A DNA stretch of 64,000 nt from Sciurus carolinensis. Its lineage: Eukaryota > Chordata > Mammalia > Rodentia > Sciuridae. A model generated the notes under the pieces. The model ran no database searches, was not told where the DNA came from, and saw only the letters and a program-made list of their open reading frames with translations. The DNA lies in the NCBI RefSeq assembly GCF_902686445.1, contig NW_025920104.1, positions 4,526,001-4,590,000 on the forward strand, given 5' to 3'. Position numbers and translations under genes: made by a program. Shown here in pieces: positions 8,421 through 64,000 of this stretch (positions within the stretch are counted from its first letter, which is position 1; each line of letters starts with the position of its first letter).

Positions 8421-9302
8421 TGATTTATTGCAATTCACTTGTTCTACCTTTGTAAGAAATGCTGCTTTCCTAATGAAAGTCCAAGTCATACCTTCCACTG
8501 CAGTTTTTGTAAGCTTGGAATAAGTGTTTATGGACTGAGCAGCTGAGAATCAATCATGGGGACTCAATATGTTAGGGGATTTTCTTCTAATTAGTTATCT
8601 TTGTGGGGAATGGGTGCTGATCATTTATTAATATTATGGTCCAAGAGTACATAAAATATCTTAACTGAAATAAGGCTACCACATTTAAACCTTTAGTGAA
8701 TACTACAGAGTAGGTAAGGGAGGAGAGCCAAGAGAGTTCTGTGAATCATGAATGTAAGCATTGTGATTGTGGAATTAAAGCACATACATCTTCAGTTTGT
8801 TGGTACTGCTGCTTTCACATAAGTGTGTCAGAGGTTGCACATATGTCCATTTTGGACTGACAGATCACCAGAAGGTGACCGCTCTAGGCATGTGCCTCCT
8901 TTATCAGGCTGAACAAACCTCAAGCCAGGGTACATGGTACTAGGGCATGAGTTCAGCCCCTCTCAGTCCCTATCTGGGTACTTTTGTGCAGGGTCACATG
9001 ATTTTCACTTTAACAGCCTCCAACCCACCCTCAAGTTTTCTTAGAGGTTCCTTATCTCCTCGAAATCCAGAGATAACCAGAGGCAGAGTGACTGTTGTTT
9101 GCCACCTCTGGTAGGTTTATCCTAATGATGCCTGCTTGATCACATTTTTAATATGTTATTTAAGCACTGCTTAAAATAGTTAATATAATTAATAATCCAG
9201 TTATATTTAGCAACCAATGATACAGAACTTCAATCAAAGTACTATGTGTATTTGAGGTGCAGAGAAAATGTGTGCAATATAAGATTTTTAGCTGTATACC
9301 TG
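8421..9302. other. Non-coding sequence left of the L1 insertion
   Basis: No gene or classified repeat is recognised. Its right end, ending in GCCTCTACACTTTA (9303-9316), is the pre-insertion target of the L1. Confidence 0.5.
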
Positions 9303-9316
9303 GCCTCTACACTTTA
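9303..9316. repeat. Target-site duplication, left copy
   Basis: GCCTCTACACTTTA, identical to 17322-17335. The two copies bound an 8.0-kb insert, showing that everything between them came in as one retrotransposition event. Confidence 0.92.
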
Positions 9317-10487
9317 TTTTATTTTATTTTTTTTTACTTTTCTGAAGAAATCTATTTTATTTGCAAGACACTAAATCTACAAGAGAATGATTGTTAAATC
9401 ATTGCAGTACTTGAAGGTGTGCCAGAAAATAATATGGTAAAAATCATACATGTATTCCTATTGAAAGGTACTCAATTCATGTGAATACCTTTTAATATAA
9501 AATTCTATAAATAGCATCAAAACACCATCAGAGATGCATTCAAATGAATTTTTGGATAGAAAATCAGAAACTGTATGTTGACAAACTAGACAAAAATGTA
9601 ATATGTCCCCTACATGTTTGAATTTCTCAATTACTGAGTTACATAAGATTAATTCAACATATACAGAAAAAATTAGAATTGTATTAAATTCATTTGCTTA
9701 TATTTTTGGTGGTGGGGAGATGGATTGATTTCTAAGAAGGCAGTGGGATTAACAAGTACAGGCAAATTACATTGGATAATACTTGATTAATTCAATACAA
9801 TAATTATTCTAAATTATCTACTAAAATCTCTTATTGGGGAAATTAAAGAGAATATCTGCTTATAATAAATTAATGAAGGAGATTAGACTCTACAGTTACA
9901 AGCAAAGAACAAAGGCACAAATGAGGTATAAAATGATCATATTTTGTGCCATAGAGTAAATGCATGAGATAATTCTTGCATTGAATCACTTGAAAGCCAT
10001 TAAAACCTTAGTCAAAAAGAAAAAAAGGAAAAAAAAAGAAAAACGTGAGAAAAAAAATGATGAGGACATGTGCATAAAAACCAAAGAACCATTGGGTAAA
10101 AAATAATCACAAACAGGTATGAATAGGTCAAAAATATCATACTTCCAAAAATTCAGCTACATTGAAGAATGCAATATTGTAAAATAAATATATTTCTTTA
10201 GTGAACTGTAATATATAATGAAAATATTTAGAATGGGTTTTAAGTTAATGAATTTTAAAATTCTCAAAAAGACTCTAGGTTTGCCAAATATTTGTGGCAA
10301 AATCACATCAAAATTTCTTTTTCTTTTTAGTATGCAACAAAGAACACATCACATTTAAATATCCAAGGAAAAGTCTTTCAGTAGAATTTATTTAGGTGTA
10401 GATCTTGAGGATCAATTTTGCTCAATTTTAGATCAGCTATCTATGCAGACTGGTTACTTTTCTCATTTTACTATAATTTAAAATAAT
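9317..10487 (-). other. 3' transduced segment carried with the L1
   Basis: This AT-rich stretch has no L1 similarity, yet it lies inside the target-site duplications. On the L1 sense strand it follows the L1 3' UTR and its short A7 run (10488-10494). It ends with a canonical AATAAA about 20 nt before a terminal A-rich tail (plus-strand T-rich run 9317-9335). That is the signature of read-through past the L1 poly(A) site into flanking genomic DNA, followed by reverse transcription. The segment should therefore be a copy of the sequence downstream of the parent L1. An A-rich patch at about 10013-10058 (plus strand) lies within it. Confidence 0.82.
9356..9361 (-). terminator. AATAAA polyadenylation signal of the transduced transcript
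   Basis: Canonical hexamer on the minus strand, about 20 nt upstream of the terminal poly(A). The spacing is right for cleavage at the recorded 3' end. Confidence 0.8.
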
Positions 10488-10764
10488 TTTTTTGTATTGT
10501 ATACAAATGGAATACATGTTGTTTCTCTATTGGTACATAGAGTCAAGGCATACCATTTGTGTAATCATACGTTTACATAGGGCAATGATGTTTATTTTTT
10601 ATTCCTTCCCCCCACCACTCCCACCCCTCTTTTCCCTCTATACAGTCCTTCTTTCCTTCATTCTTACTGCTCTCCTTATCCCTAACCCTAAACCTAACCC
10701 TAAACCTAATGCTAACCCCTCCCACCCCCATTATATGTCCTCATCCACTTATCAGCGAGATCAT
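10488..10764 (-). other. L1 3' UTR
   Basis: It follows the ORF2 stop and aligns with the 3' UTR of the short L1 at 1521-1902, including the shared 'ATGATTACACAAATGGTATGCC' region. Its end has no canonical AATAAA. A weak AATACA-like hexamer directly precedes the short A-run, which fits inefficient termination and the read-through seen here. Confidence 0.85.
10679..10728 (-). repeat. Telomere-like, G-rich tract in the L1 3' UTR
   Basis: On the L1 sense strand this is a run of TTAGGG and TTAGGTT-like units next to G-runs of four or five, with potential to form a G-quadruplex. The short L1 copy has an equivalent tract at about 1644-1696. Confidence 0.8.
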
Positions 10765-13700
10765 TCATCCTTTAGTTTTTTGAGATTGGCTTATCTCACT
10801 TAGCATGATATTCTCCAATTTCATCCATTTGCCTACAAATGCCATAATTTTATCATACTTCATTGCGGAGTAATATTCCAATGTATATATATGCCACCGT
10901 TTCTTTATCCATTCATCAACTGAAGGGCATCTAGGTTGGTTCCACAATCTGGCTATGGTGAATTGAGCAGCAATGAACATTGATGTGGCTGTATCTCTGT
11001 AGTATGCTGATTTTAAGTGCTTTGGGTATAGGCCAAGGAGTGGGATAGCTGGGTCAAATGGTGTTTCCATTCCAAGCTTTCTGAGGAATCTCCACACTGC
11101 TTTCAAGAGCGGCTGCACTAATTTGCAACCCCACCAGCAATGTATGAGTGTTCCTTTTTCACCACATCCTCGCCAACACCTATTGTTGCTTGTGTTCTTG
11201 ATAATCGCCATTCTAATTGGGGTGAGATGAAATCTTAGGGTAGTTTTGATTTGCATTTCCCTTATTACTAGGGATGTTGAACATTTTTTCATATATCTGT
11301 TGATTACTTGTACATCTTCTTCTGTGAAGTGTCTGTTCATTTCCTTAGCCCATTTGTTGATTGGATTATTTGTATACTTGGTGTAGAGTTTTTTGAGTTC
11401 TTTATAGATTCTGGAAATTAGCGCTCTATCTGAGGTATTGTTGGCAAAGATATTCTCCCACTCTGTAGGCTCTCTCTTCACATTTCTGATACTTTCCTTT
11501 GCTGAGAGAAAGCTTTTAAGTTTGAATCTATCCCAGTTGTTGATTCTTGCTTTTATTTCTTGTGCTATGGGAGTCCTGTTAAGGAAGTCTGATCCTAAGC
11601 CAACAAGTTGAAGATTTGGACCTACTTTTTCTTCTATAAGATGCAGGGTCTCTGGTCCGATTCCGAGGTTCTTGATCCATTTTGAGTTGAGTTTTGTGTA
11701 GGGTGAGAGATAGGGGTTTAATTTTATTCTATTGCATGTGGTTTTCCAGTTTTCCCAGCACCATTTGTTGAAGAGGCTATCTTTTCTCCATTGCATATTT
11801 TTGGAACTTTTGTCTAGTATGAGAAAATTGTATTTATTTGGGTTTGTGTCCATGTCCTCTATTCTGTACCATTGATCTACCTGTCTATTTTGGTACCAAT
11901 ACCATGCCGTTTTTGTTACTATTGCTTTGTAGTAGAGTTGAAGATCTGGTATTGCAATACCCCCTGCTTCGCTCTTGCTACTGAGGATTGCTTTAGCTAT
12001 TCTAGGTTTTTTATTCTTCCAGATGAATTTCATAATTGCTTGCTCTATTTCTGCAAGGTACATCATTGGGATTTTAATTGGAATTAAATCTGTATAGCAC
12101 TTTAGGTAGTATAGCCATTTTGACGATATTAATTCTGCCTATCCAGGAACATGGGAGATCTTTCCATCTTCTAAGGTTTTCTTGAATTTCTTTCTTTAGT
12201 GTTCTGTAGTTCTCATTGTAGAGGTCTTTCACCTCTTTTGTGAGATTGATTCCCAAGTATTTTATTTTTTTCGATGCTATTGTGAATGGGGTAGTTTTCC
12301 TAATTTCTCTTTCTGAAGATTCATCACTTATGTATAAAAATGCATTGGATTTATGAGCATTGATCTTGTAACCTGCCACTTTACTGAATTCACTTATGAG
12401 TTCTAAAAGTTTTCTGGTGGAATTTCCAGGTTCCTCTAAATATATAATCATGTCATCAGTGAACAGGGATAGTTTGAGTTCTTCTTTTCCTATTCGTATC
12501 CCTTTAATTTCTTTGGTTTGTCTGATTGCTCTGGCTAGAGTCTCAAGGATGATGTTGAATAGAAGTGGTGAAAGAGGGCATCCCTGCCTTGTTCCAGTTT
12601 ATAGGGGGAACACTTTCAGTTTTTCACCATTTAGAATGATATTAGCCATGGGCTTAGCATAGATTGCCTTTATAATGTTAAGGAATGTTCCCACTACCCC
12701 AATTTTTTCTAGTGTTTTGAGCATGAATGGATGCTGTATTTTATCGAATGCTTTTTCTGCATCTATTGAAATAATCATGTGATTCTTAACTTTAAGTGTG
12801 TTGATATGGTGAATGACATTTATTGATTTCCGAATGTTGAACCAACCTTGCATCCCTGGGATAAAACCCACTTGATCGTGGTGCACTATATTTTAATATA
12901 TATTTGTATGCGATTTGCTAAAATTTTGTTGAGAATTTTTGCGTCAATGTTCATTAAGGATATTGGTCTGAAATTTTCTTTCCTCGATGTGTCTCTGTCT
13001 GGTTTAGGTATCAGGGTGATATTGGCTTCATAGAATGAGTTTGGGAGGGTTCCTTCCTCTTCTATTTTATGGAATAGTTTGAGGAGTATTGGAATGAGCT
13101 CTTCTTTAAAGGTTTTGTAGAACTCGGCTGAGAACCCATCTGGTCCTGGACTTTTCTTTGTTGGTAGGCTTTTGATGACCTCTTCTATTTCATTGCTTGA
13201 AATTGGTTTATTTAAGTTGTGTATGTCCTCCTCGTTCAGGTTAGGTAATTCATATGTCTCTAGAAATTTGTTGATGTCTTCGAGGTTTTCTGTTTTGTTG
13301 GAGTATAGATTTTCGAAATAGCTTCTAATTATGTTTTGTATTTCAGTCGTGTCTGTTGTGATGTTTTCTTGTTCATTCCGAATTTTAGTAATTTGAGTTT
13401 TCTGCCTCTTTCTCTTTGTTAGTGTGGCTAAGGGTTTATCAATTTTATTTATTTTTTCAAAGAACCAACTATTTATTTTGTTAATTTTTCCAATTGTTTC
13501 TCTTGTTTCGATTTCGTTGATTTCGGCTCTGATTTTAACTATTTCCTGTCTTCTACTACTTTTGGTATTGGTCTGCTCTTCTTTTTCTAGTGCTTTGAAC
13601 TGTACTGTTAAGTCGTTTATTTGTTGATTTCTACTTCTTTTTTTGAATGTGCCCCATGAAATAAATCTTCCTCTAAGTACTGCTTTCATAGTGTCCCAGA

Positions 13701-14581
13701 GATTTTGATATGATGTGTCTTTGTACTCGTTTACTTCTAAGAATTTCTTTATTTCCCTCCTGATGTCTTCTGTTATTCATTCATCATATAATAGTGTATT
13801 ATTTAGTCTCCAGGTATTGGAGAAGTTTCTGTTTTTTATTCTGTCATTTATTTCTAATTTCAATCCATTATGATCTGATAGAGTACAAGGTAGTATCTCT
13901 ATCTTCTTGTATTTGCTAACAGTAGCTTTGTGGCATAAAATATGGTCTATTTTAGAGAAGGATCCATGTGCTGCTGAGAAGAAAGTGTATTCGTTCTTTG
14001 TTGGATGGTATATTCTATATATGTCCGTTAAGTCTAAATTGTTGATTGTGTTGTTGAGATCTATAGTTTCTTTATTCAATTTTTGTTTGGACGATCTATC
14101 CAGTGGTGAGAGAGGTGTGTTAAAATCGCCTAGTATTATTGTGTTGTGGTCTATTTGATTTCTGGAATTGAGAAGGATTTGTTTGACGTATGTGGATGAG
14201 CCAATGTTGGGGGCATAGATATTTATGATTGTTATGTCTTGCTGATTTATGCTTCCCTTAAGCAGCATGTAGTGTCCTTCTTCATCCCTTCTGACTAGTT
14301 TTGGTTTGAAGTCTACATTATCTGAAATGAGGATGGATTCTCCAGCTTTTTTGTTGTCCGTGTGCATGGTATGATTTTCACCATCCTTTCACCTTTAGTC
14401 TATGGGTGTCTCTTTCTATGAGATGAGTCTCTTGCAGGCAGCATATTGTTGGATTTTTCTTTTTAATCCAATCTGCCAGTCTGTGTCTTTTGATTGATGA
14501 ATTCAGGCCAGTAACATTCAGGGTTATTATTGTGATATGATTTGTATTCCCAGTCAATTGACTCATATTTGTTTTTGACAT
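10765..14581 (-). pseudogene. L1 ORF2 (endonuclease / reverse transcriptase), inactivated
   Basis: ORF2p nicks target DNA and reverse transcribes L1 RNA. The span is 3817 nt, about 1272 codons, a normal length. An endonuclease domain is visible first (TLNVTGLNSS, LQETHL, then NIYAPN, LGDFN, SDHNGL). The reverse transcriptase follows ([47 protein letters not shown], and FTDD at 12452-12463 where FADD is usual). The end carries a Cys-rich motif ([18 protein letters not shown]). Lesions: a frameshift near 14370, TGA at 13777-13779 in place of an apparent Trp codon, a frameshift near 12890, TAA at 12599-12601, and a frameshift near 12070. The C-terminal third (10765-12066) is one uninterrupted frame of 433 codons. 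It starts 31 nt after the ORF1 stop, as in other bicistronic L1s. Confidence 0.93.
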
Positions 14582-14612
14582 GATTTGGTTTCTCCTTTAT
14601 TTGGCTATTCCT

Positions 14613-15667
14613 TTAGGCTAGCACCTCCTGTTGCTGATTTGCGTCATTGTTTTTCATCTCTTCCGCATGGAATATTTTGCTGAGAATGTTCTGTAATGCT
14701 GGCTTCCTTTTTGTAAATTCTTTTAGCTTTTGTTTATCATGGAAGGATCTTATTTCATCATCAAATTTGATGGTAAGTTTTGCTGGGTATAAGATTCTTG
14801 GTTGGCATCCGTTTTCTTTCAGGGCTTGGTATGTTCTTCCAGACCCTTCTAGCTTTTAGGGTCTGGATTGAAAAATCTGCTGATATTCTTATTGGTCTCC
14901 CTCTGAATGTAATTTGATTCTTTTCTCTCGCGGCCTTAAAAATTCTGTTTTTATTTTGTATGTTAGTTATTTTCATAATAATGTGCTTTGGTGTGGGTCT
15001 GTTGTAATTTTGTATGTTTGGAGTTCTATAAGCCTCTTGTACTTGGTTTTCCATTTCATTCTTCAGATTTGGGAAATTTTTTGATATTATCTCATTGAAT
15101 AGATTGTTCATTCCTTTGGTTTGTTTCTCTAAGCCTTCCTCAATCCCAATAATTCTTAAATTTGGCCTTTTTATGATATCCCATAATTCTTGTAGATTCT
15201 GTTCATGATTTCTTACCATCTTTTCTGTTTGGCCAACTTTGTTTTCAAGATTAAATAATTTGTCTTCAATGTCTGAGGTTCTGTCTTCCAGGTGTTCTAT
15301 CCTATTGGTTATGCTTTCTATGGAGTTTTTAACTTGGTTTATTGTTTCCTTCATTTCAAGTATTTCAGTTTTTTTTTTTTTTCAGTATCTCTAACTCTTT
15401 ATTGAAATGATCTCTTGTTTCCTGTATTTGGTCTTTTAACTGTTGATTGGTGCGATCATTTAATGCCTTCATTTGCTCTTTCATCACCTCCTTCAATGCC
15501 TGCATTTGCTCTTTCATCTCCTCATTAGCTTCCCTGATCGTTTTAATTACGTACATTCTGAACTCCCTTTCTGACATTTCTTCTGCTGTGCTGTCATTGG
15601 GTTTTATTGATGTAGTATCTAGGTTTGTTTGGGACATTTTCTTCCCTTGTTTTCTCATATTGTTCAA
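14613..15667 (-). pseudogene. L1 ORF1 (RNA-binding chaperone), inactivated
   Basis: ORF1p trimerises through a coiled coil and coats L1 RNA. The start is ATG at 15667 (MNNMRKQGKKMSQT). The N-terminal 100 codons form a charged, heptad-like region (EEMKEQMQALKEVMKEQM). The frame breaks in an A14 run (plus-strand T run 15369-15382). It resumes in another frame at 15354 with more coiled coil, an RRM-like stretch (LRIIGIEEG) and the C-terminal domain. A second frameshift lies near 14790-14830, after which the original C terminus can be followed to a TAA at 14613-14615. Total length is about 351 codons, normal for the family. Confidence 0.92.
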
Positions 15668-16114
15668 CTGTCAGTGGGTCCCTGAGGTATTGCAGTTTTC
15701 TGCTATTGGCTTATAGTGTTCGGTAGATTTCCAGTGTATCACCTCCCAGCCTTCAGTAGCCTGATGTCTTGGAGGAATCTGATAATGCAGCGCATCCAAA
15801 GAAAACTGCCCCTATCCCCCTACTGGTTCCCCGGTTTGGAGCTGGCACTGTGTGGAAAGGCTCTCACTGTGGGCCTGCACCGTGCAGCTGGCCGTGTGGG
15901 AGGAACCCACTGCCAGAGTGTGGAAGGCTACCTTGGGAAGACTCTAGCTGCCCTGCCAGCTCCGATAAGCCACCTCTATCTGGGCCTGCCACCCGGGCCG
16001 AGCTTTACCCAGTGGGCAGACTCACCTGTGGCTCTATTTCAGTCTGAGTCTCTCAATGCCTCCCCTTCTTAACTCCTGGGTTCTGGAGCGACTGGGGGTG
16101 CAGTCATCCTCTAG

Positions 16115-16127
16115 GCCGCCATCTTGG
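16115..16127 (-). promoter_or_regulatory. YY1-like site in L1 5' UTR unit
   Basis: Reads CCAAGATGGCGGC on the L1 sense strand, matching the YY1 core AAGATGGCGGC. In human L1 a YY1 site at the extreme 5' end sets the transcription start. Binding here is inferred. Confidence 0.7.
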
Positions 16128-16715
16128 ATCACCCCATGAAGAGAGCCTGTGGCCGGAGTGGGCAGAGCCGCCTGAAGAGGTCTCTGGCTGCCCTGCCCTG
16201 ATCCCAGAGGCTGCTTGCAGATCGAAGCTCTCCGTTGGTTTGGGGGCTTGTGGCTGGTTCTATGTAGAAAACCTCTCACTGGACAGTCTGGTATGAGAAG
16301 CTAGCCTTGAAAGGCACCTCCCACCGCAGGGGTCCAGGCTACTTGGGGAAGTCTCTGGCTGCCCTATCCTGGTCCCTGAAGCTGCTTGTGTGCCAGAGTA
16401 CACTGTGCTGCGCTGGCTCCAGGACTTGGAGCTTGTTCTGGTCAGAAAGGTTCTCACTAGCGGGCCAGCTCCGGGAACCTGGAGAAGCTGGCTGTGTGGG
16501 CGGGGCCCACCACTGGAGTGCGCAGGACTGTCTGTGGAAGACTCTAGCTGCCCTGCCCTGCTCCGATAAACCATCTCTATCTGGGCCTGCCACCCAGGCT
16601 GAGCTTTACCCAGTGGGCAGATTCACCCGTGGCTCTATTTCAGTCTGAGTCTCTCAATGCCTCCCCTTCTTAACTCCTGGGTTTTGGAGCGACTGGGGGT
16701 GCAGTCACCCTCTAG

Positions 16716-16728
16716 GCCGCCATCTTGG
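16716..16728 (-). promoter_or_regulatory. YY1-like site in the upstream L1 5' UTR unit
   Basis: Identical 13-mer, exactly 601 bp from the other copy. The third expected copy is missing because the insert ends in the CTAGAG stretch directly downstream of where it would lie. Confidence 0.7.
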
Positions 16729-17321
16729 ATCACCCCGTGAAGAGAGCCTGCAGCCAGAGTGGGCAGAGCTGCCTTAAGAAGTCTCTGGCTGCCCTGCCCT
16801 GATCCCAGAGGCTGCTTGCAGATCGAAGCTCTCCGTTGGCTCGGGGGCTTGTGGCTGGTTCTATGTAGAAAGCCTCTCACTGGGTGGTCTGCTCCGAGAA
16901 ACTAGCCTTGAAAGGCAACTCCAAACCGCAGGGGTCCAGGCTACTTGGGGAAGTCTCTGGCTGCCCTATCCTGGTCCCTGAAGCTGCTTGCGTGCCGGAG
17001 TACACTGCGCTGCGCTGACTCTGGGTCTCGGAGCTTGTTCTGGTCAGAAAGGCTCTCACTAGCAGGCCTGTTCTGTTCCGAGAACCTGGAGAAGCTGGCT
17101 GTGTGGGCGGGGCCCACCGCCGGAGTGCACAGGGCTGCCTGTGGAAGACTCTAGCTGCCTTGCCTGGCTCCGATAAGCCACCTCTATCTGGGCCTGCCAC
17201 CCGGGCCGAGCTTTACCCAGTGGGCAGACTCACCTGTTGCTCTATTTCAGTCTGAGTTTCTCAATGCCTCCCCTTCTTAACTCCTGGGTTCTGGAGTGAC
17301 TGGGGGTGCAGTCTCCCTCTA

Positions 17322-17335
17322 GCCTCTACACTTTA
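17322..17335. repeat. Target-site duplication, right copy
   Basis: GCCTCTACACTTTA, identical to 9303-9316. It abuts the 5' end of the L1. Confidence 0.92.
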
Positions 17336-53700: not shown

Positions 53701-54785
53701 CTACATGTGCAGTCCTGACCCAGAGTCTCCTAGGAACTTCATGCAACAGGTTCACAACACACACTGTATTCAGGTTCACAACACACACTGGTTCCTGGGA
53801 GTTGCAGGCCACATGCTTTCCATATACCCCTATGGATCCTGTGTAATATAACCCATCCCTCCTGTGTGACCCTCACCCATAGTATCTGGGATCTTCAGTC
53901 TACATGTTCACCATCCACCTCTGAGAATTCTGGGTAGTACAGCTCATCCTTCCTGTACAGCCCTTACTCAGAGTTTCCATGGAACTTCAGGCCACATGCT
54001 CACTACACACTCCTCAGGATTCTGGGTAGTACAGTCCAACCTTGTGCTCCCCTCAGAATGAGGCTCCTGACAACTACTGGCTACATGCTTACCCCTGACC
54101 TGAATATTCTGGATAGTGCAGCCCATTCTACTTTTGTGGCCACATACATAGTCTTCAGGGAGTTGCATGTCACCTGCTCATAAGGCACCTCTGAGAATTG
54201 TGGATAGTGTAACAAATTCTTCCCAGGCAGCCATCTTCCAGAGGCTCTGAGGAAGTGCCTGCTACATTTTCACCTCTTATCCATCAGGATTCTACCAGTG
54301 TAATCCATTTATCCTGTATGGCACCCAAACAGAGTATTTCAGGAGTTTCATGCCCCATGTGCTCCACAAACCCCTGAGGATTATGAGTAGTGTAATCCAT
54401 CACAACTTTACAGCCTCACACAGAAGATCCTGGGAGTTTCAGATCACATACTCAACAAACATCCTGTGGATTCTGGTAGTGCAGTCTATCCTTTCTGTTC
54501 AGGGCTCACAAGATGATACTTGGAGCTTCATCCACATACTCATTAAGCACAGTGATGATTCTGGGTACCACAGCCCATCCTTCCTTGGTGGTCTTCACCC
54601 AGGATATCCAAGGAGCTGCATATCACATGACCATCACAAAACCCTGAGGATTATGTCTAATGCAATCCATCCCTCCTTTGTGGTCCTCACCTAGATGCTC
54701 CTGGATGCTGCTGGCCACAAGCTCTCATGTACATTGTGGATTCTTGGTTGTGTAGTCAGTCCTTCCTGTGCACACCTAACACACA
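50709..54785 (+). repeat. Tandem satellite family A (~91-bp unit)
   Basis: Units share the order CTTCCTGTGCAGCCCTCACC, then AGAGGCTCCTGGGAGCTGC, then GGCCACATGCTCACCA, then GAGGATTCTGGGTAGTGTAA. The GATTCTGG landmark falls at 51033, 51121 and 51197, and comparable spacing (76-91 bp) continues across the block, so some units are truncated. Units are diverged from each other. A unit length of about 91 is not a multiple of three and the frames are broken. I see no transposon or gene in the block. Confidence 0.92.
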
Positions 54786-57700
54786 TCTTCCCTGAACCCC
54801 AGAAGATATCTACTCTTCCCTCACAATGACTGTGTGTTTTAGTAGGTCAGTCTTTTCTACAACCCAGTACGTTTCCACAGGCCCCTCACACAGCTTGCTT
54901 GCTCAACTTGGTCAATCCTGCCAGCCTTCCGGAAGGAATCTGCACCCCAATCACAGTGCCAGCATGTTCACTGTGGATCAGTCTTCCCAGCACCTAAGTA
55001 TGTTTTGGCACATCCTTCACACTGCCTGGTTGCTCATGTGGATCAACCTCCCTGCAATTCAGGCTATTGCCACTGGCCCCTAAAACTGCCTCCTTGCTCA
55101 CCTGGGTCAGTCTTTTCTGCATGCTAAAATGAATCCAAACAATCCTCACACTGCCTGCTTGATCCCTGTGGGTCATTCTTGCTGTATAACAGCACGTATC
55201 TCCACACCTGTCACAACGCCTGTGTGCTCACTGTGGGCCAATCTTCCATGCAACCCAGAAGGTGTATGCACACCCTTCATACTGCCTGCTTTTTCACTGT
55301 GGTTGAGTATTATATGCACCCCAGAAGATTCCCACAGGCCTTCTGCTAGAATGCTCATTATGGGTCAGCGTTCTCAATCCCCTCACACTGATTGTTTATC
55401 CAGCTCTGTCACTCTTCCCTGAACCACAGAAGGTTTCTGCAAGCTCCACAAATTACCTTATGGCTCAGCTGAGTAGTCTTCCCTACACCCCAGTAGGTTT
55501 CCAAAGACCACCCACACTGCCTGATCACTATGGCTCATACTTCCCTGTACCTCAGTATTTTTCCACATACTCCTCACTCTGCCTACTTGCACAGTTCAGT
55601 GAGTGTTCCATGCACCCCAGAAGAAATGTGCATGCCTCTCACACTGCCTGGTTTCTCACTGTAGTTCAATTTTCCCTGAAATGTCAGCAGCTTTCAACAC
55701 ATCCCTCACTGCATATTTGTACACTGTGCATGAGTCTTCAGAGCAACACAGCATTTTTCCACAAGCCCCTCCTAATGCCTGATTGCTCAGTTGGGTCAAT
55801 CTTCCCTGAACCACAGCATATTTCCACAGAATCCATATGCTGCCTGCTTGTTCACTGTGTCAGTCTTTCATGCATCTTAGTAGGATTTGACACATTCCCA
55901 ACACTGCCTGTTGCTCACTGTGGATCCATCTTCACACCTCATTAGGTGTGGGCAAGTCAGTCACACCACCAACTTGCTTACATGGGTCAGTCTTCCCTGC
56001 ACACCCCTGTCTTTCAAAGGCCCCTCACACTGCCTGCTGGCTCACTGTGGTTCAATCTTCCCTGCACACATGCAGGTTAGCATGAACTCTTCACACTGCC
56101 TGCTTGCTCATTGTGGGTTATTCTTTGTATCCCAACTGATTTCCACAAGGCAAATCACACTTCACTTTGCTGAGCTGGGTTAGTCTTTCCTGCACCTCAG
56201 TCTTTCCTGCATTTCACCACACCCCTAAATATTCCTGTTTCCTAACTGTGCTCCATCTTCACTGCACCCCAGAAGATGTACACAAGCCCCTTAAACTGCC
56301 TATTTACCCACTGTGGGTCAATCTTCCTGCACTCTGGCATATGTCAACAGCCCCATCACAATGTGTGCTTGCACAGCTGTATCAGTCATCCCTGCATTCC
56401 AGCAGATTTTCCCATGCCCCTCAAAATGCCTCCTCAATCACTGTGCAGTAGTGTTCCCTGTAGTTCAACAAGATTCCAAAGCAGCATAAACAACCTGCTT
56501 GTTCAACTGGGTCAGTCTTCCCTAAGCCCCAGCAGATTTCACTTGCCCCTCACACTGATTACTTGCTTAGATGGGTCATCCTAGAATGAATCTACATCCA
56601 GCTTCCCTCTTCCTATATCCTCAATGTGGGTCATTCTTCCAAGAACCTCAATATATTTTAGCACATCCCTCACACTGCCATTCTGCTCACTCTGGGTCAC
56701 TCTTCCCTGCATCCCAGCAAGATTCAACAGGCCCCTCACTGTCTACTTGCTCACTTGGGTCATTCATCCCTTGACACCAGGAAAAGTCTGTGTACCACTC
56801 ACTGCCTGCTTTCTCACTGTGGTTCAATCTTCCCTGTACCTGCTGTTTGCCACCAGTCCCTAAAAACTGCATGCATGGTCACCTGGGTTGGTCTTCCCTA
56901 CACTCAAAAAGGTGTACAAACAACTCGTCCACTGCCATCCTGTCTTCTCTGTACCACAGTTGTCTGGAATCACCTCACATTGCAAGAAAGTACACCTGTG
57001 TCAGTCTGGCCTGCACCCCAGTAGTTTGTCTCGAGCTTCACACACAGCCTGTTGGCTCAGCTTAATCTATCTTCCCTGTACCCCTGTAGTTTTCCACAGG
57101 CCTCTCACACTGCTACGCATGATCACTGAGGGTCAGTTTTCCCTGTGCCCTAGAAGGTTTCTACAGGCTCCTCAAACCGCCTGTTTCTCAGTTGTCTGTC
57201 TTCCCTGAAACTGAAAATATGTTCCCACACCACTCACACTGCCTGTATGCTCACACTGCCTGCAATCTCACTGTGGGTCATTCTTCCCTGCACCCAAGGA
57301 GCTTTTCCACAGTCCCCTTTCACTGCGTGCTTGCTCAGCTGAGTTAGTTTTACTGCACTTGTGCATGTTTCCCATGCCCATCAAATTGCACATTTGCACA
57401 CTGTGGGCGACTCTTCTTTGAAATGAAGGAGGTTTCCTCAGGCCATCCCACTTCCTCACTTGAGTCAGTATTCCATACACCCCCAACACATTTCCACAGA
57501 CCATCACACTACCTGCTTGCTCACAGAAGATCAGTCTTCCCAGTACTGCAGCAGGAGTCTGCATACCCACTCACTTCTTGGTTGCTCACTCTGGGTATAC
57601 CTTTCCATTATGTCAACTGGTTTCCACAACTTTTACACTGACTGCTCACTGGGGTCAGCCTTCCTTGCATCCAAAAGGTGGATTTGCATGCCCAACATAT

Positions 57701-58114
57701 TGCATTTTTCAGCTGAGTCACTCTTCCCTGCACACAAGCAGATTGCCACAGGACCACATGCTGCCTGCTTGCTCACTGTGGGTCAGTCTTCCATGCACCC
57801 CAGCAGGTGTACACAAGGCTCTCATGCTGCCTGCTTGCTCATTGTTGGTCAGTCATCCCTGCACCACAGCAGGTATATGCAGGCCTCTCATGCTGCATGA
57901 CTCCTCACACTTGGTCAGTCCTCTGGGCACTCCAGCAGGTGTACATAGGCCCTCTTACTGCCTGACTACTCACTGTGGGTCAGTATTCCCTGTATCCCAG
58001 CAGGTATAAACAGGCTCCTGATGCTTCCTACTTGCTCACTCTGTGTCAGTCTTCCTTGTACCCCAGCACATATACACAGGCCTCTCACACTGCCTGAATA
58101 TTCACTGTGGGTTG
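54786..58114 (+). repeat. Tandem satellite family B (~66-bp unit), left block
   Basis: Units contain GTCAGTCTTCCCTG, then CACCCCAGCAGG, then TTTCCACAGG or GTGTACACAGG, then CCCCTCACACTGCCTG. Up to about 57.7 kb most units are the TTTCCACAGG / AGCTGGGTCAG subtype and quite diverged. From there the GTGTACACAGG / CACTGTGGGTCAG subtype takes over. At 66 bp the unit is 22 codons, and it has no stop in any of the three plus frames, which explains the many open frames seen here. Confidence 0.92.
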
Positions 58115-58172
58115 GTGGGCTTATGTTCATATACTTGGTTGTAGAGATAACTGACCCACAGTGAGTATTCAG
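58094..58172. repeat. Inverted repeat at the array inversion junction
   Basis: CTGAATATTCACTGTGGGT (58094-58112) pairs with ACCCACAGTGAGTATTCAG (58154-58172) at 18 of 19 positions, around a 41-bp loop. It is formed by two oppositely oriented family-B units meeting near 58115. Confidence 0.88.
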
Positions 58173-60363
58173 ACTATGTAGGGGCCTTTGTACACCTGCT
58201 GGGGTGCAGGGAAGATGAACAACAGTGAATAGTCAGGGAGCAAGTGGGAAATTTGTACACCTGCTATGGTGCAGGGAAGACTGACCCACAGTGAGTAGTC
58301 AGGCAGCAGGAGAGGCCTATGTGCAGCTGCTATGGTGTAGGGAAGATTGACCCACAATGAGTAATCAGGCAGTCTGAGGGACATGTGTACACTTGTTGCG
58401 ATGCAGGGAAGACTGACCCACAGTGAGTACTCTAGCAGTGTGAAGGGCCTATGTACCCCGGCTTACCCAGAATGAGTAGTGAGACAGTGTGAGGGGCCTG
58501 TGTATATGTGTTGGGGTGCAAGGAAGACTGACCCAGAGGTGAGTAAGGAGGAAGTATCAGGGGCCTGTGTATACCTGCTGGGGTGCAGGGAAGACTGACA
58601 CACAGTGAGTAGTCAGGCAGGAAGAGGGGCTTGTGTACCCCTGCTGGGTTTCCTGAAAGACATACCCACAGTGAGTAGTCAGTCAGTGTGAGGGACCTGT
58701 GTACACCTGCTGGAGCCCAAAAAAGACTGACCAACCACGTGTGGACAGTCATTGTGTTGGGGCTGTGTATACATTTTGGGGCTCAGGGAAGACTGAACCA
58801 CAGTGAGTAGACAGAAAGTGTGAAGGGCATGTGTACTCCTGCTGGGGAGCAGGGAATACTGACTCACAGTGAGTATTCAGGCAATGTGAAGGGACTGTGT
58901 ATACTTTCTGGTGTGTAAAGAAGACAGACCCACAGAAAGTAGTCAGTCAGTGTGAGGGACCTGTATACATCTGCAGGAGGGAAGGGAAGACTGACCACAG
59001 TGTGAAGAGTCAAGCAGCATCAGAGACCTGTTTGCACCTGCTAGGGTGCAGAAAAAACTGACCCACAGTGAGTAGTGAGGCACTGTGTGGGGCCCATATA
59101 CATCAGCTGGGGTTCAGGGAAGAATGACCCACAGTGAGTGTCAGGAAGTGTGAGGAGTCTGAGCACACCTTCTGGGGTCCAGGGAAGGTTGACCCACAGT
59201 GATGAGATTGGCAGTGTGAAGGGCCTTTGTACACCTTGCTGGGGTGCAGGGAAAATTAACCCACATTGAAGTCAGGCAGCAAACGGGGTCTGTGTACACA
59301 CACTGGGGTGCAGGGAAGACAGACCCAAGTGAGTAATCAGGCAATGTGAGGGGCCTGTGTACATCTGCTGGGGTGCAAAGAAAACAACCAAAGTAAGCAA
59401 GTAGGCAGTGTGATGGTCCTGTGAACACCTGCTGGGGTACAGTGAACACAGACCCACAGGGAGTAGTGAAGCAGAATGAGGATCCTGTGTTTACCTTCTC
59501 GTGCGCAGGGAAGTCTGACCCAGAGTTAGGAGTTGGGCAGTGTGAGGGCCCTGTGTATACATTTTGGGTTACAGGAAAGACTAACCCACAGTAAGTCACC
59601 AGGCAGCAAGAGGGTCCTGTGTACACCTGCTAGGGTGCACGGAAGATAGAACCACTGTGTGTAGTCAGGCAGCAAAAGGGGCCTGTGTACACCTGCTAGG
59701 GTACAGGGATACTGATGCAAAGTAAGTAGTCAGGCAGTATGGGCAGCCTGTATACACCTGTTGTGATGCAGGGAAGATTGACCCACCGTGACTACTCTGT
59801 CAGTGTGAGGGGCCAGTGTACACCTGCTAGGGTGCAGGGAAGACTCACCAAGAGTAAGTAGTGAAGCAGTGTGGGGGGCCTGTGTATATGTGCTGGGGTG
59901 CAAGGAAGACTGACTCAGAGTGAGCAAGAAGGAAGTATGAGAGGCCTGTGTACACCTGTTGGGGTGCAGGGAAGACTGACCTACAGTGAGTAGTCAGGGA
60001 GTGTGAGGGGACTGTGTACACTTGCTGGGGTGCAGAGAAGACTAATGCATAGTGATTAGTCAGGGAGCAAGAGGGGTCTGTATACACTTGCTGGGGTGCA
60101 GGGAAGATTGACCCTCAGTGAGTAGTCGGGCAGTGTGATGGACCTGTGTATTCATGCTAGGGTTCATGAAACACTAATGCACAGAGAGAAGTCAGCGGAT
60201 GTGAGGGGCCTGGGTACACCTGCTGGGGTGTAGGGAAGACTGACCCACAGTGAGCAAGCAGGCAGTGTGAAGGGCGTATGTACACCTGTGGGTGTATAGT
60301 GAAGACTGGTCCACAAGGAGTAGTGAGGCAGAATGAGGGTCCTCTGTATACATTCTTGTGTGC
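58115..60363 (-). repeat. Tandem satellite family B, inverted block
   Basis: Every unit reads in reverse: 'GACTGACCCACAGTGAGTAG', 'CAGGCAGTGTGAGGGGCC', 'TGTGTACACCTGCTGGGGTG'. Neighbouring landmarks are 65-67 bp apart (for example CCCACA at 58285, 58352 and 58417). Units belong to the GTGTACACAGG subtype and look more uniform than the left block. Orientation flips back near 60363. Confidence 0.93.
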
Positions 60364-63300
60364 CTTGCTGACTTACTCCTCACTGTGTCAGTCTTCCTGG
60401 CACCCCAGCAGGCACACACATGCACTGATTGCTGCCTGAGTACTCACTGTGAGTCAGTCTTCCCTAAACCCCAGCCAGTATATGCAAGGCCCTCACAATG
60501 TGTGTCAACAAACTCTCTAACAGTCTTCCACATACCCTTGCAGGTGTACACAGGCATCTCACACTGCCTGAACTCACTGTGGGTCAGTATTCTCTGCACC
60601 CCAGGAAGGGTATACATGCCTGAGACACTGCCTGACTACTCACTGTGGGTCAGACTTTTCTGCACCCAAGAAGGTATACACAGGCCCCACTTGCTCCCTC
60701 ACTACTCACTGTGGGTCAGTCTTCCCTGCACAGGAGATGTACATCACCCCCTTATGCTGCCTGACTACTCACTGTGGGTCAGTCTTCCCTCAAGCTCTTC
60801 ACAATGCCTCACTACTCACTTTGAGTTAGTCCTCTGCACAACCTGGCAGGTGTACACAGGCCCCTCTTGCTTTCTGACTACTCACTGTCATCAGCCTTCT
60901 ATGCACACCAGCATGTATAAACTGCCTGAAGACTCTGTGGGTGTCATTTTCCTTTACCCCTGAAGTTGTACACATGTCCCTCACACTGCCTAAATACTCA
61001 CTGTTGGTAAGTCTTTTCTGCACCCAAGCAGGTATACCCAGGCCTCTCATGTTTCCTGCTTACTCACTGTGGTTCAGCCTCTCCAGCATCCCAGGAGGTG
61101 GGCAAAGACCCTCACACTGCCTAACCACTCACTCTGGGTCAGCCTTCCCTATACTGTAGCACATATACATAGTGCCCTCACAGTTCCTCATAGTGCCCTC
61201 ACTGAGGGCCAGTCTACTGTGTACCCCAGCAGATGTAAACAGACCCCTCCCATTGCATGAGTCAGTCTTTCCAGCACCCCAGCATGTGTATACAGGCCCC
61301 TCATTCTGAGGGGCTACACAACCTGGGTCAGTCTTCCCTGCACCCCAGCTCTTGTACCCAGGCCCTTCACACTGCCTGACTACTCACTGTGGGTCAGTCT
61401 TCCTTGCACACCAGCAGAAATTTTAGGCCCCAGCACTGCTTGACTAATCAATGTGGTCAATCTTTCCTGTACCCCAGCAAGTATACACAGGCCCAAGCTT
61501 TCCACTTGCTATCTGTGGGTCAGAGTTTCCTGAAGATTAGCAAGTGTACACAGGCCCTCAACACTGCCTGACTACTCTCTGTGGGTCAGTCTTCCATGCA
61601 AAACAGCAGGTATACACAGGCCCCTTACACAGCATGACTACTCACTGCAGGTATGTCTTTCAGGAAACCCAGCAGGTATACAAAAGCACCTTTTGCTGAC
61701 TGAATACTCACTGTGTGTCACTGAGTGCAGTGTTCCCTGTACCCCAGCATGTATACACAGGCTATTCACACTGCCTGATTACTCATTGTGAGTCAGTCTT
61801 CCCTCCATCTCAGCAGGTATACACAGGCTCCTCACACTGCTTGACTACTCACTATGGGTCAATGTTCCAGGCAACCCAGCAGGTATACAAAATTGCCTCT
61901 TGCTGCCTGACTACTGATTGTTGGTCAGTCTTCCCTGAACCCCAGCAGTTATACACAGGCCTCTCATACTGCCTGAATATTCTCTGTGGGCTAGTCAACC
62001 CTGCACACAAGCAGGTATACACAGGCCCCGCATGCTGCCTAAATATTCACTGTGGTTGTCCATGGACCCTTAACACTGCCTGACTACTCACTTTGTGTCA
62101 GAAATCCCTGCACTCCAGAAGGTATATACAGGCCCCTCACACTGCTTGATTACCCACTGTGGGTCAATCTACCCTGTACCCCAATAGGTGTACACAAGCC
62201 CTTCAGACTGCCTGTCTACTCACTTTTGGTCAGACTTTCCTGCACCCCAGTGGGTACACAAACGCCCCTCACACCGCCTGACTACTCACTCTGAGTCAGT
62301 GTTCCATGGACACCAGGTGGTGTACAGAAGTCTACCATGCTGCCTGAACACTCATCATTGGTCATTGTTCCCTGCACCCCTGCAGGTGTACACAGGCCCA
62401 TCACATTTGACCAGTCTTTCTTCAACCCCAAAATGTGTCCACACACCCCTAACATCCAACTTACTCATGGGGTCAGTCTTCCATGTACCCCAGCAGGTTT
62501 CTTCAGGGCCCTCAGACTGCCTACTTGTTCAACTGTGTTAGACTTATCTGCACCCTAGCAAGTATCCACACACCACCCTGCCAGCTGCTCACATTGGGTC
62601 AGTCTTCCAATTCACCCAGCAGTTTTTCAAACTCCCACACAATCACTGCTTGCTCAGCCACTTCAGTCTTCCCTGGACCCCAGCAGGTGTTGGCACATGC
62701 CCCTCACTGCCGGCTTACTTACACTTGGTCTCCCTTTACTGCATCCCAGCAGGTATATACCAGTTCTTGACACTCTTAGCTTGCTCTAATTGGTCAGTTC
62801 TTCTCCAACACTTCCAGTTTTCTCACACTGCTAGATTGAAACTGTGGGTTCATCTTCAAAGCACTTCAGAAAGTTGCCACTGGATCCTAAAATTGCCTGC
62901 TTGCTCAGCTGGATCTGTCTTGCCTGTACCCCCAAAGGGGTCCACACACCATTCACACTGCAAGCTTTCTCCCTGGGGGTCAGTATTTCATGCCTCCTGC
63001 ATGTTTCCACAGAACTTAAATACTACCTGTTTATTCAGTTATGTCATTATTCCCTGCACCCCAGCAGGAATCTACACCCCTCTCAACTGCTTCTCAATGC
63101 TCACTCTGTATCAGTCTTTCCTTTGCCCCAATGGTTTCCACATACCCCTCACAGTGCCATCTTACCCATATGGGTCAGTCTTACCTGAACCCCAGCAGAA
63201 GCCAGCCTGCCCCTCACACTGCATTCTTGTTCAACTGGGTCAGACTTCCTTGCACACAAACAGGTTGCCACAGGTTTCAAACAATGCCTGCATGCTTACT

Positions 63301-64000
63301 GTGGATCAGTCTTCCTTGCACATTGGCTGATTTCCACCAGCCATTCACAGTGCAAGCTTGCTCAGCTGGGTCAGGTTTTCCCAGCACCACAGCATTTCCC
63401 CACAAACCTAAGAATTCCTTCATGCTCACTGTGGTCCCAATTCCCAGATCCCATCAAATGTTCTCTTGTGACTCAGACTCCTTGCTTAATCACGATGGGT
63501 CAGTTTTTCAGCACCCAAGTATGTATTTCCAGCCCTCTTGTACAGCTGGGTCAGTCTTCCCTGCACCTCAGCAGTTGTCCACATGGCCATCATGATTCCT
63601 ACTTATTGGGTTGTATCTGTCTTCCTTGCACCCCAGAAATATGTTGCAACCTGCAAAAAATGCCTACAGGCTCAGCCTGCTCAATCTTCCCTACTAAGGT
63701 TTCCACAGACCCTTCACACTGCCTGATTGCTCAATGTGGGTCAATTTTCACTGCACCCAGGTAGGTGTTCACAGGTCCCACACACTGCCTACTTGCTAAA
63801 CTGGGTCAGTTTTCCCTGAACCTCAGAAGGTTTCCAGTGACAAATCACAGTGCTTCCTTGGTCAAATATGTCTTCCTTGCACTCATCCAGATGTCCACAC
63901 ATCCCCACATTCCCTGATTTTTCAGCTGGTTCAGTATTCTTTACTACCCAGCAGATTGTCACATGTCCAACAAATTGTGTGTGTGTGCTCTCTGTGTGTT
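60364..64000 (+). repeat. Tandem satellite family B, right block
   Basis: Plus-oriented units again; CACTGTGGGT landmarks fall at 60641, 60707 and 60770. The GTGTACACAGG subtype continues to about 62.4 kb and then gives way to the TTTCCACAGG / AGCTGGGTCAG subtype. Units are still recognisable at 63960, so the array runs off the right edge. The longest open frame (62650-63330, 226 codons) is a by-product of the 22-codon stop-free unit, not a gene. Confidence 0.92.

What the first reader, a model, noticed from the sequence alone, without database searches (positions are those of the whole stretch)
9303..17335. L1 insertion carrying about 1.17 kb of 3' transduced genomic DNA
The 14-bp duplication GCCTCTACACTTTA flanks not just the L1 but also 1.17 kb of non-L1 sequence beyond its 3' UTR. 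That sequence ends with AATAAA about 20 nt before a terminal A-rich tail, while the L1's own end has only a weak AATACA-like signal and a short A7 run. This is the textbook outcome of transcriptional read-through, and it tags the parent L1: its locus should have the same 1.17 kb immediately downstream.
Basis: partly seen in the sequence, partly recalled or inferred. Interest (0 to 1): 0.75.

Follow-up and report, generated by a model that had tools for sequence, protein, structure and literature searches.

The report
Jumping gene carrying copied neighbouring DNA
In a squirrel genome, a near-full-length L1 jumping gene landed together with about 1,150 bases that match DNA found elsewhere in the genome, and unfilled versions of the landing site in the same genome show that it was one insertion, of a well-known kind.

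Summary
The finding holds. A 6.83-kb L1 (minus strand, 10488-17321), 1,154 bp of non-L1 DNA (9334-10487) and a 17-nt A-rich tail (9317-9333) lie between two identical copies of GCCTCTACACTTTA. Two tests within this genome settle most of it. (1) The landing site is a low-copy repeat; 12 of 12 other copies are empty, both flanks joined through one 14-mer. (2) The 1,154 bp is a slice of a larger duplicated block: of 39 other copies, 36 read straight through the place where the window turns into L1, and in 3 that place was not reached. In 19 of 19 checked, block sequence continues where the window has its tail, 22 nt after AATAAA. So L1 plus slice is one target-primed insertion, best read as a 3' transduction from an L1 inside such a block. 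That parent was not found: only the window spans the junction. It resembles the "parentless" transductions described in dogs. New member of a known kind; modest interest. The tag names a family of loci, not one locus.

The parts
9303..9316 (.). target-site duplication, copy next to the 3' end of the insert
   Evidence: exact 14-bp match to 17322-17335; present once in 12 of 12 paralogous empty sites, 0-3 mismatches
9317..9333 (-). A-rich tail of the insert (17 nt)
   Evidence: donor copies continue with other genomic sequence at this point in 19 of 19 checked (9 of them also printed)
9334..10487 (-). 3'-transduced genomic DNA, 1,154 bp, a slice of a larger duplicated block
   Evidence: 40 genome copies scored including itself; of 18 other copies fetched at 10 kb, 11 align with L010 over 5 kb or more; closest is L010 on scaffold C151, 95.8%
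9356..9361 (-). AATAAA polyadenylation signal of the transduced DNA
   Evidence: 22 nt before the tail; present in 17 of 19 donor copies
10487..10493 (-). A7 run at the L1 / transduced DNA junction, read as remnant of the parent L1's own tail (inferred)
   Evidence: no other place spans this junction
10488..17321 (-). L1 element, about 6.83 kb, broken reading frames
   Evidence: Pfam L1 ORF1 and endonuclease/RT matches on the minus strand; ORF list
14761..15354 (-). L1 ORF1 part (Transposase_22 and trimerisation domains)
   Evidence: PF02994 E 6.4e-24, PF17489 E 5e-5
10765..14367 (-). L1 ORF2 region, in at least four separate ORFs (endonuclease, RT pieces, C-terminal part)
   Evidence: PF03372 E 2.2e-8; two PF00078 fragments below the curated cut-off; no Pfam match for the last ORF
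15823..17321 (-). L1 5' UTR made of about 2.5 tandem units of about 600 bp
   Evidence: self-alignment at offsets of 607 and 1,208 bp, 88-91%
17322..17335 (.). target-site duplication, copy next to the 5' end of the L1
   Evidence: right flank resumes exactly after the 14-mer in paralogs

Best explanation
A parent L1 once sat in one copy of a duplicated genomic block of the squirrel, with its 3' end facing this 1,154-bp slice. Transcription ran past the L1's own weak end and the RNA was cut at the block's own AATAAA site. That read-through RNA was reverse transcribed by target priming at the window's site and integrated nearly whole, leaving a 14-bp duplication and an A-rich tail. Shown: one insertion, foreign 3' DNA, poly(A) signal encoded in the donor DNA, tail absent from the donor copies checked. 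Inferred: the parent L1 next to the donor slice, and read-through as the cause.
For: Identical 14-bp duplication around the whole composite. 12 of 12 paralogous empty sites with both flanks joined through a single 14-mer; in independent whole-genome searches with each flank, the two hits lie exactly 14 bp apart at 10 of these 12 places, and in the other 2 the right-flank match starts later, at base 16 or 32. The slice belongs to a larger block, not to L1: 19 of 19 copies fetched at 10 kb run on past both ends (block extent), and 17 further copies read through the L1-side junction (15, 2). The tail starts 22 nt after an AATAAA that 17 of 19 donor copies carry, followed in many donors by a TATGTGTAGG-like stretch. 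The window slice nests inside the donor family, next to L010. The junction falls at a TT/AA step of the donor block, fitting an earlier L1 insertion there; in such AT-rich DNA this is weak support.
Against: No copy with an L1 at the junction was found, so the parent is not shown; in 3 of 39 copies (C39, C164, C243) the junction was not reached. The nick site of the final insertion, CTTTA/GA on +, departs from the L1 consensus TTTT/AA (recalled) at two places. The tail side was checked in 19 of 39 other copies only. The AATAAA is changed in 2 of 19 donors.
Confidence: 0.9

Rival explanations
1. RNA recombination: the reverse transcriptase first copied a polyadenylated transcript of the donor block and then switched to the 3' end of an L1 RNA (or the two RNAs were ligated), so that no parent L1 ever lay beside the slice.
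For: Only the window spans the L1-donor junction in the searches made. L1 chimeras with other RNAs are documented (PMC13174262, passages).
Against: It needs a donor RNA beginning exactly at a TT/AA step; the A run at the junction is only A7, whereas a switch onto a polyadenylated L1 RNA could leave a longer one (inference). In the passages read, the catalogue places the partner RNA at the L1 5' end, not the 3' end.
Confidence: 0.07
2. The parent is an L1 lying about 3 kb upstream in the same orientation, as in L020 and L025, with the 3 kb between them spliced or deleted out.
For: L020 and L025 carry an L1 of similar type (92.7 and 94.3%) about 3 kb upstream of the slice, same orientation.
Against: Their slices differ from the window by 11.3 and 11.8% against 4.0% for L010; the donor sequence just before the junction does not end in AG in the 8 copies printed.
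Confidence: 0.02
3. Two separate events: the slice was at this place first and the L1 landed later at its edge.
For: None beyond adjacency.
Against: The 14-bp duplication brackets both parts; 12 of 12 empty sites lack both; the A-rich tail next to a duplication is at the outer end of the slice.
Confidence: 0.01

Closest known systems
L1 3' transduction (Moran 1999, Goodier 2000, Pickeral 2000; seen here only as references 71-73 of PMC13103737)
   Same: flanking DNA beyond the L1 3' end copied with it, ending at a second poly(A) signal and tail, all inside one target-site duplication (general description recalled)
   Different: here the parent was not found and the tag is a multi-copy duplicated block, so it names a family of loci
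'Parentless' 3' transductions of dogs (PMC13103737, passages read)
   Same: the transduced sequence maps to a place with no L1 in the reference assembly; in the dog example the parent is an L1 present in only some genomes
   Different: the window's insertion is probably older (own branches 2.8 and 2.1%), its L1 is broken, and the donor is duplicated; that study removed transductions with excess alignments due to segmental duplication, and alignments to unplaced sequences
L1 chimeras made by template switching or RNA ligation (PMC13174262, passages read)
   Same: L1 joined to unrelated RNA within one duplication
   Different: in the passages read the partner lies at the L1 5' end; here it lies at the 3' end with its own poly(A) signal

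Membership tests
L1 3' transduction | non-L1 genomic DNA directly 3' of an L1, same insertion | tested here: met
L1 3' transduction | target-site duplication surrounds L1 and extra DNA together; empty site exists | tested here: met
   14/14 duplication; 12 of 12 paralogous empty sites; orthologous site in another species not testable here
L1 3' transduction | extra DNA ends at its own poly(A) signal and a tail that the donor DNA lacks | tested here: met
   AATAAA 22 nt before the tail, in 17 of 19 donors; 19 of 19 donor copies checked without the tail
L1 3' transduction | extra DNA exists elsewhere as ordinary genomic sequence | tested here: met
   39 other copies, lying in larger blocks
L1 3' transduction | parent L1 directly upstream of that sequence (not always found; parentless cases are accepted as transductions in PMC13103737) | tested here: inconclusive
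   no such junction found in this assembly, 36 of 39 donor copies uninterrupted, 3 not reached; an unassembled, lost or segregating parent is not excluded
L1 target-primed insertion | nick at a TTTT/AA-like site (consensus recalled) | tested here: inconclusive
   CTTTA/GA, two departures (read)
L1 (LINE-1) | ORF1 and ORF2 domains | tested here: met
   PF02994, PF17489, PF03372 above cut-off; RVT_1 fragments below it
Template-switch chimera | partner RNA with its own 5' start at the junction | not testable with these tools
   no transcript data held for this genome

The most novel reading that the evidence does not exclude
The junction arose by recombination between an L1 RNA and a separate polyadenylated transcript of the duplicated block, with the foreign RNA on the 3' side: an L1 chimera of the reverse order to those in the catalogue passages read, in which a non-L1 poly(A) primed the insertion and a nearly full-length L1 was picked up second.
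Probability: 0.06. Interest if true: 0.55.

Novelty: new member of a known kind. Interest (0 to 1): 0.3.

Why it matters
It is a clean worked example. Because both donor and landing site are low-copy duplications, one genome alone supplies the empty site and unfilled donors, which otherwise need other genomes or species. It also shows a limit of the method: transductions out of segmental duplications cannot name a single parent, and a published pipeline drops them (PMC13103737). It points to a parent L1 in the squirrel lineage that the searches of this assembly did not find: lost, segregating or unassembled.

Tried and rejected
Chance duplication and ancestral slice: rejected. L020/L025 as parents: disfavoured by divergence and position. 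L057-L061 (five donor copies) as parents: L1 sequence does abut the block there, but about 300-330 bp short of the junction, in the opposite orientation relative to the block and 66-88% identical to the window L1; in 2 of these 5 (C413, C59) the block resumes beyond that L1 and reads through the junction, in 3 (C39, C164, C243) the junction was not reached. The C10 fragment (L029, 96% over 338 bp of the slice, found) as a sibling insertion: rejected, since it also holds 105 bp of block beyond the tail position and no match to the window L1. Rows that run into the donor side at 81-86% (7 of 39 other rows start at query positions 15-19) as parents: two of them, C9 and C12, were read and are L1 ends followed by T-rich tails and unrelated flanks; the other five were not read, but (up to 3 mismatches in 44) finds only the window. 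Naming the donor block led nowhere: 0 of 10 ORFs of L010 hit Pfam at E 0.1, and L010 has 0 Rfam matches. A plasmid search with the L010 slice found nothing and was not informative. Literature searches listed no title on L1 transduction in squirrels; I read none of the papers listed there and claim nothing wider.

Full report
What is there. On the minus strand the window holds an L1 (10488-17321), followed in the L1's own direction by 1,154 bp of other DNA (10487-9334), a 17-nt A-rich tail (9333-9317) and a 14-bp duplication whose other copy lies upstream of the L1 at 17322-17335. The 14-mer occurs nowhere else in the window. Pfam finds the L1 ORF1 domain (PF02994, E 6.4e-24), the endonuclease (PF03372, E 2.2e-8) and two weak RT pieces below the curated cut-off. 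ORF2 is split over at least four ORFs, so this copy is most likely dead.

Which genome. G000 has 752 contigs and 2,815,392,149 bases. The published grey squirrel assembly mSciCar1 has 752 scaffolds, a span of 2,815,397,268, and chromosomes 5, 10 and 11 of 175.91, 140.98 and 135.23 Mb (PMC7653645, passages and its section 5). Contigs C5, C10 and C11 have 175,905,472, 140,975,125 and 135,226,351 bases. I take it as that species; this is inference from the numbers. The window's scaffold C16 (8.4 Mb) matches no chromosome size in that table.

The empty site. The left flank 9150-9302 has 13 places in the genome, all 13 candidates scored: the window and 12 others. All 12 others were fetched. In 12 of 12 the left flank runs through one 14-mer (0-3 mismatches to GCCTCTACACTTTA, 0 in L032) straight into the right flank. 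A separate search with the right flank hits the same 12 places; at 10 of 12 its hit begins exactly 14 bp from the left-flank hit, and at the other 2 (one on C21, one on C5) its match starts later, at base 16 or 32. So everything between the duplications, L1 and slice alike, arrived at once. The closest empty paralog is L032, 1.05 Mb away on the same scaffold, 4.64% different over 755 aligned sites; the window's own branch is 2.1%.

The donor. The slice gives 41 matches in 40 places including itself, from 40 scored of 130 candidates, so copy number is a lower bound. All 39 others were looked at on the L1 side: 19 fetched at 10 kb, 15 through 0.7-kb pieces, and 5 (L057-L061) whose match ends about 300-330 bp short of the junction against a more diverged L1 in the opposite orientation. 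For 2 of these 5 the continuation beyond that L1 was then read (C413, C59). In all, 36 of 39 run straight through the place where the window turns into L1; in 3 of 39 (C39, C164, C243) that place was not reached. On the tail side, 19 of 39 were checked and 19 of 19 go on into further block sequence where the window has its tail, as does the partial C10 copy; 17 of 19 carry the AATAAA. Of 18 other 10-kb copies, 11 align with L010 over 5 kb or more; the shortest, L015, over 1.8 kb plus a detached piece. So the slice is part of a larger duplicated block. No protein or RNA family was found in it. All 40 places lie on contigs of 8.4 Mb or less, though later searches also hit chromosome 10 (C10) and C24.

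Relatedness and age. In a tree of 20 slices the window sits with L010 (split from the other 18 supported at 84), with an own branch of 2.8%; it differs from L010 at 46 of 1,152 aligned sites. The best-matching L1 3' ends elsewhere are 97% identical over about 234 bp (40 of 2,483 candidates scored). The two branches (2.8 and 2.1%) are upper bounds for change since insertion, and the L1 figure is of the same order. With a recalled neutral rate of 2-3e-9 per site and year this would be at most roughly 7-14 million years; gene conversion between copies could distort it.

The parent. Three searches were made for the junction: 88 bp donor plus 233 bp L1 (40 of 2,483 candidates scored), 91 bp around it (40 of 891), and a 44-base pattern with up to 3 mismatches over the whole genome. 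Only the window spans the junction fully. In one search, 7 of 39 other rows run some 30 bases into the donor side at 81-86%; the two read (C9, C12) are L1 ends with T-rich tails and flanks unlike the donor. Candidates were capped and very common words are skipped, so one search is the stronger negative, though it would miss a parent with more than 3 differences in 44. The nearest donor slice, L010, is itself uninterrupted. The parent is therefore lost, unassembled, on the other haplotype, segregating, or too diverged. Passages of PMC13103737 describe such parentless transductions in dogs, one resolved by an L1 present in only some genomes.

How it most likely worked. L1 transcription passed the element's own end and the RNA was cut after the block's AATAAA; it was reverse transcribed at the nick in the window's site. 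At the donor step the block reads TTTGATT/AATTATTTT in L015 and the window reads A7 then TTATTTT, which fits a former L1 insertion at a TT/AA site. The nick of the final insertion (CTTTA/GA) is a poor match to the recalled consensus. Template switching or RNA ligation is the rival that cannot be excluded without the parent.

Judgement. The two features it could not know are that both donor and landing site are duplicated within the genome, which gives the proof, and that the parent was not found. This is an ordinary process in a well-preserved example.

Noticed in passing
15823-17321 (-): The L1 5' UTR consists of about 2.5 tandem units of about 600 bp (88-91% alike). A CCAAGATGGCGGCC box, resembling a YY1 site (name recalled), stands just before units two and three (near window 16726 and 16125); this copy starts just downstream of where the first would be.
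   Followed up: partly
10680-10718: Telomere-like CCCTAA/CCTAAA repeat (TTAGGG-like on the L1 sense strand) inside the L1 3' UTR, periods 6, 12 and 18.
   Followed up: no
L020, L025: Two donor-block copies share an L1 of the same type about 3 kb upstream of the slice and are 96% alike across it, so the block was probably duplicated after that L1 arrived.
   Followed up: partly
L057-L061, L068: Five donor-block copies are interrupted at nearly the same place (slice query position about 840-870) by a more diverged L1 in the opposite orientation; on C59 the L1 3' end and the resumed block were read.
   Followed up: partly
scaffolds C57 and C79, and others: The landing-site family (11 of 13 places) and the 40 scored donor-family places sit on contigs of 8.4 Mb or less; C57 and C79 hold both. 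They may mark a duplication-rich part of the genome that the assembly could not place.
   Followed up: no
window 54251-63761 (+): Dense overlapping ORFs of 85-262 aa, mostly on +; 5 of them tested gave no Pfam match at E 0.01.
   Followed up: partly
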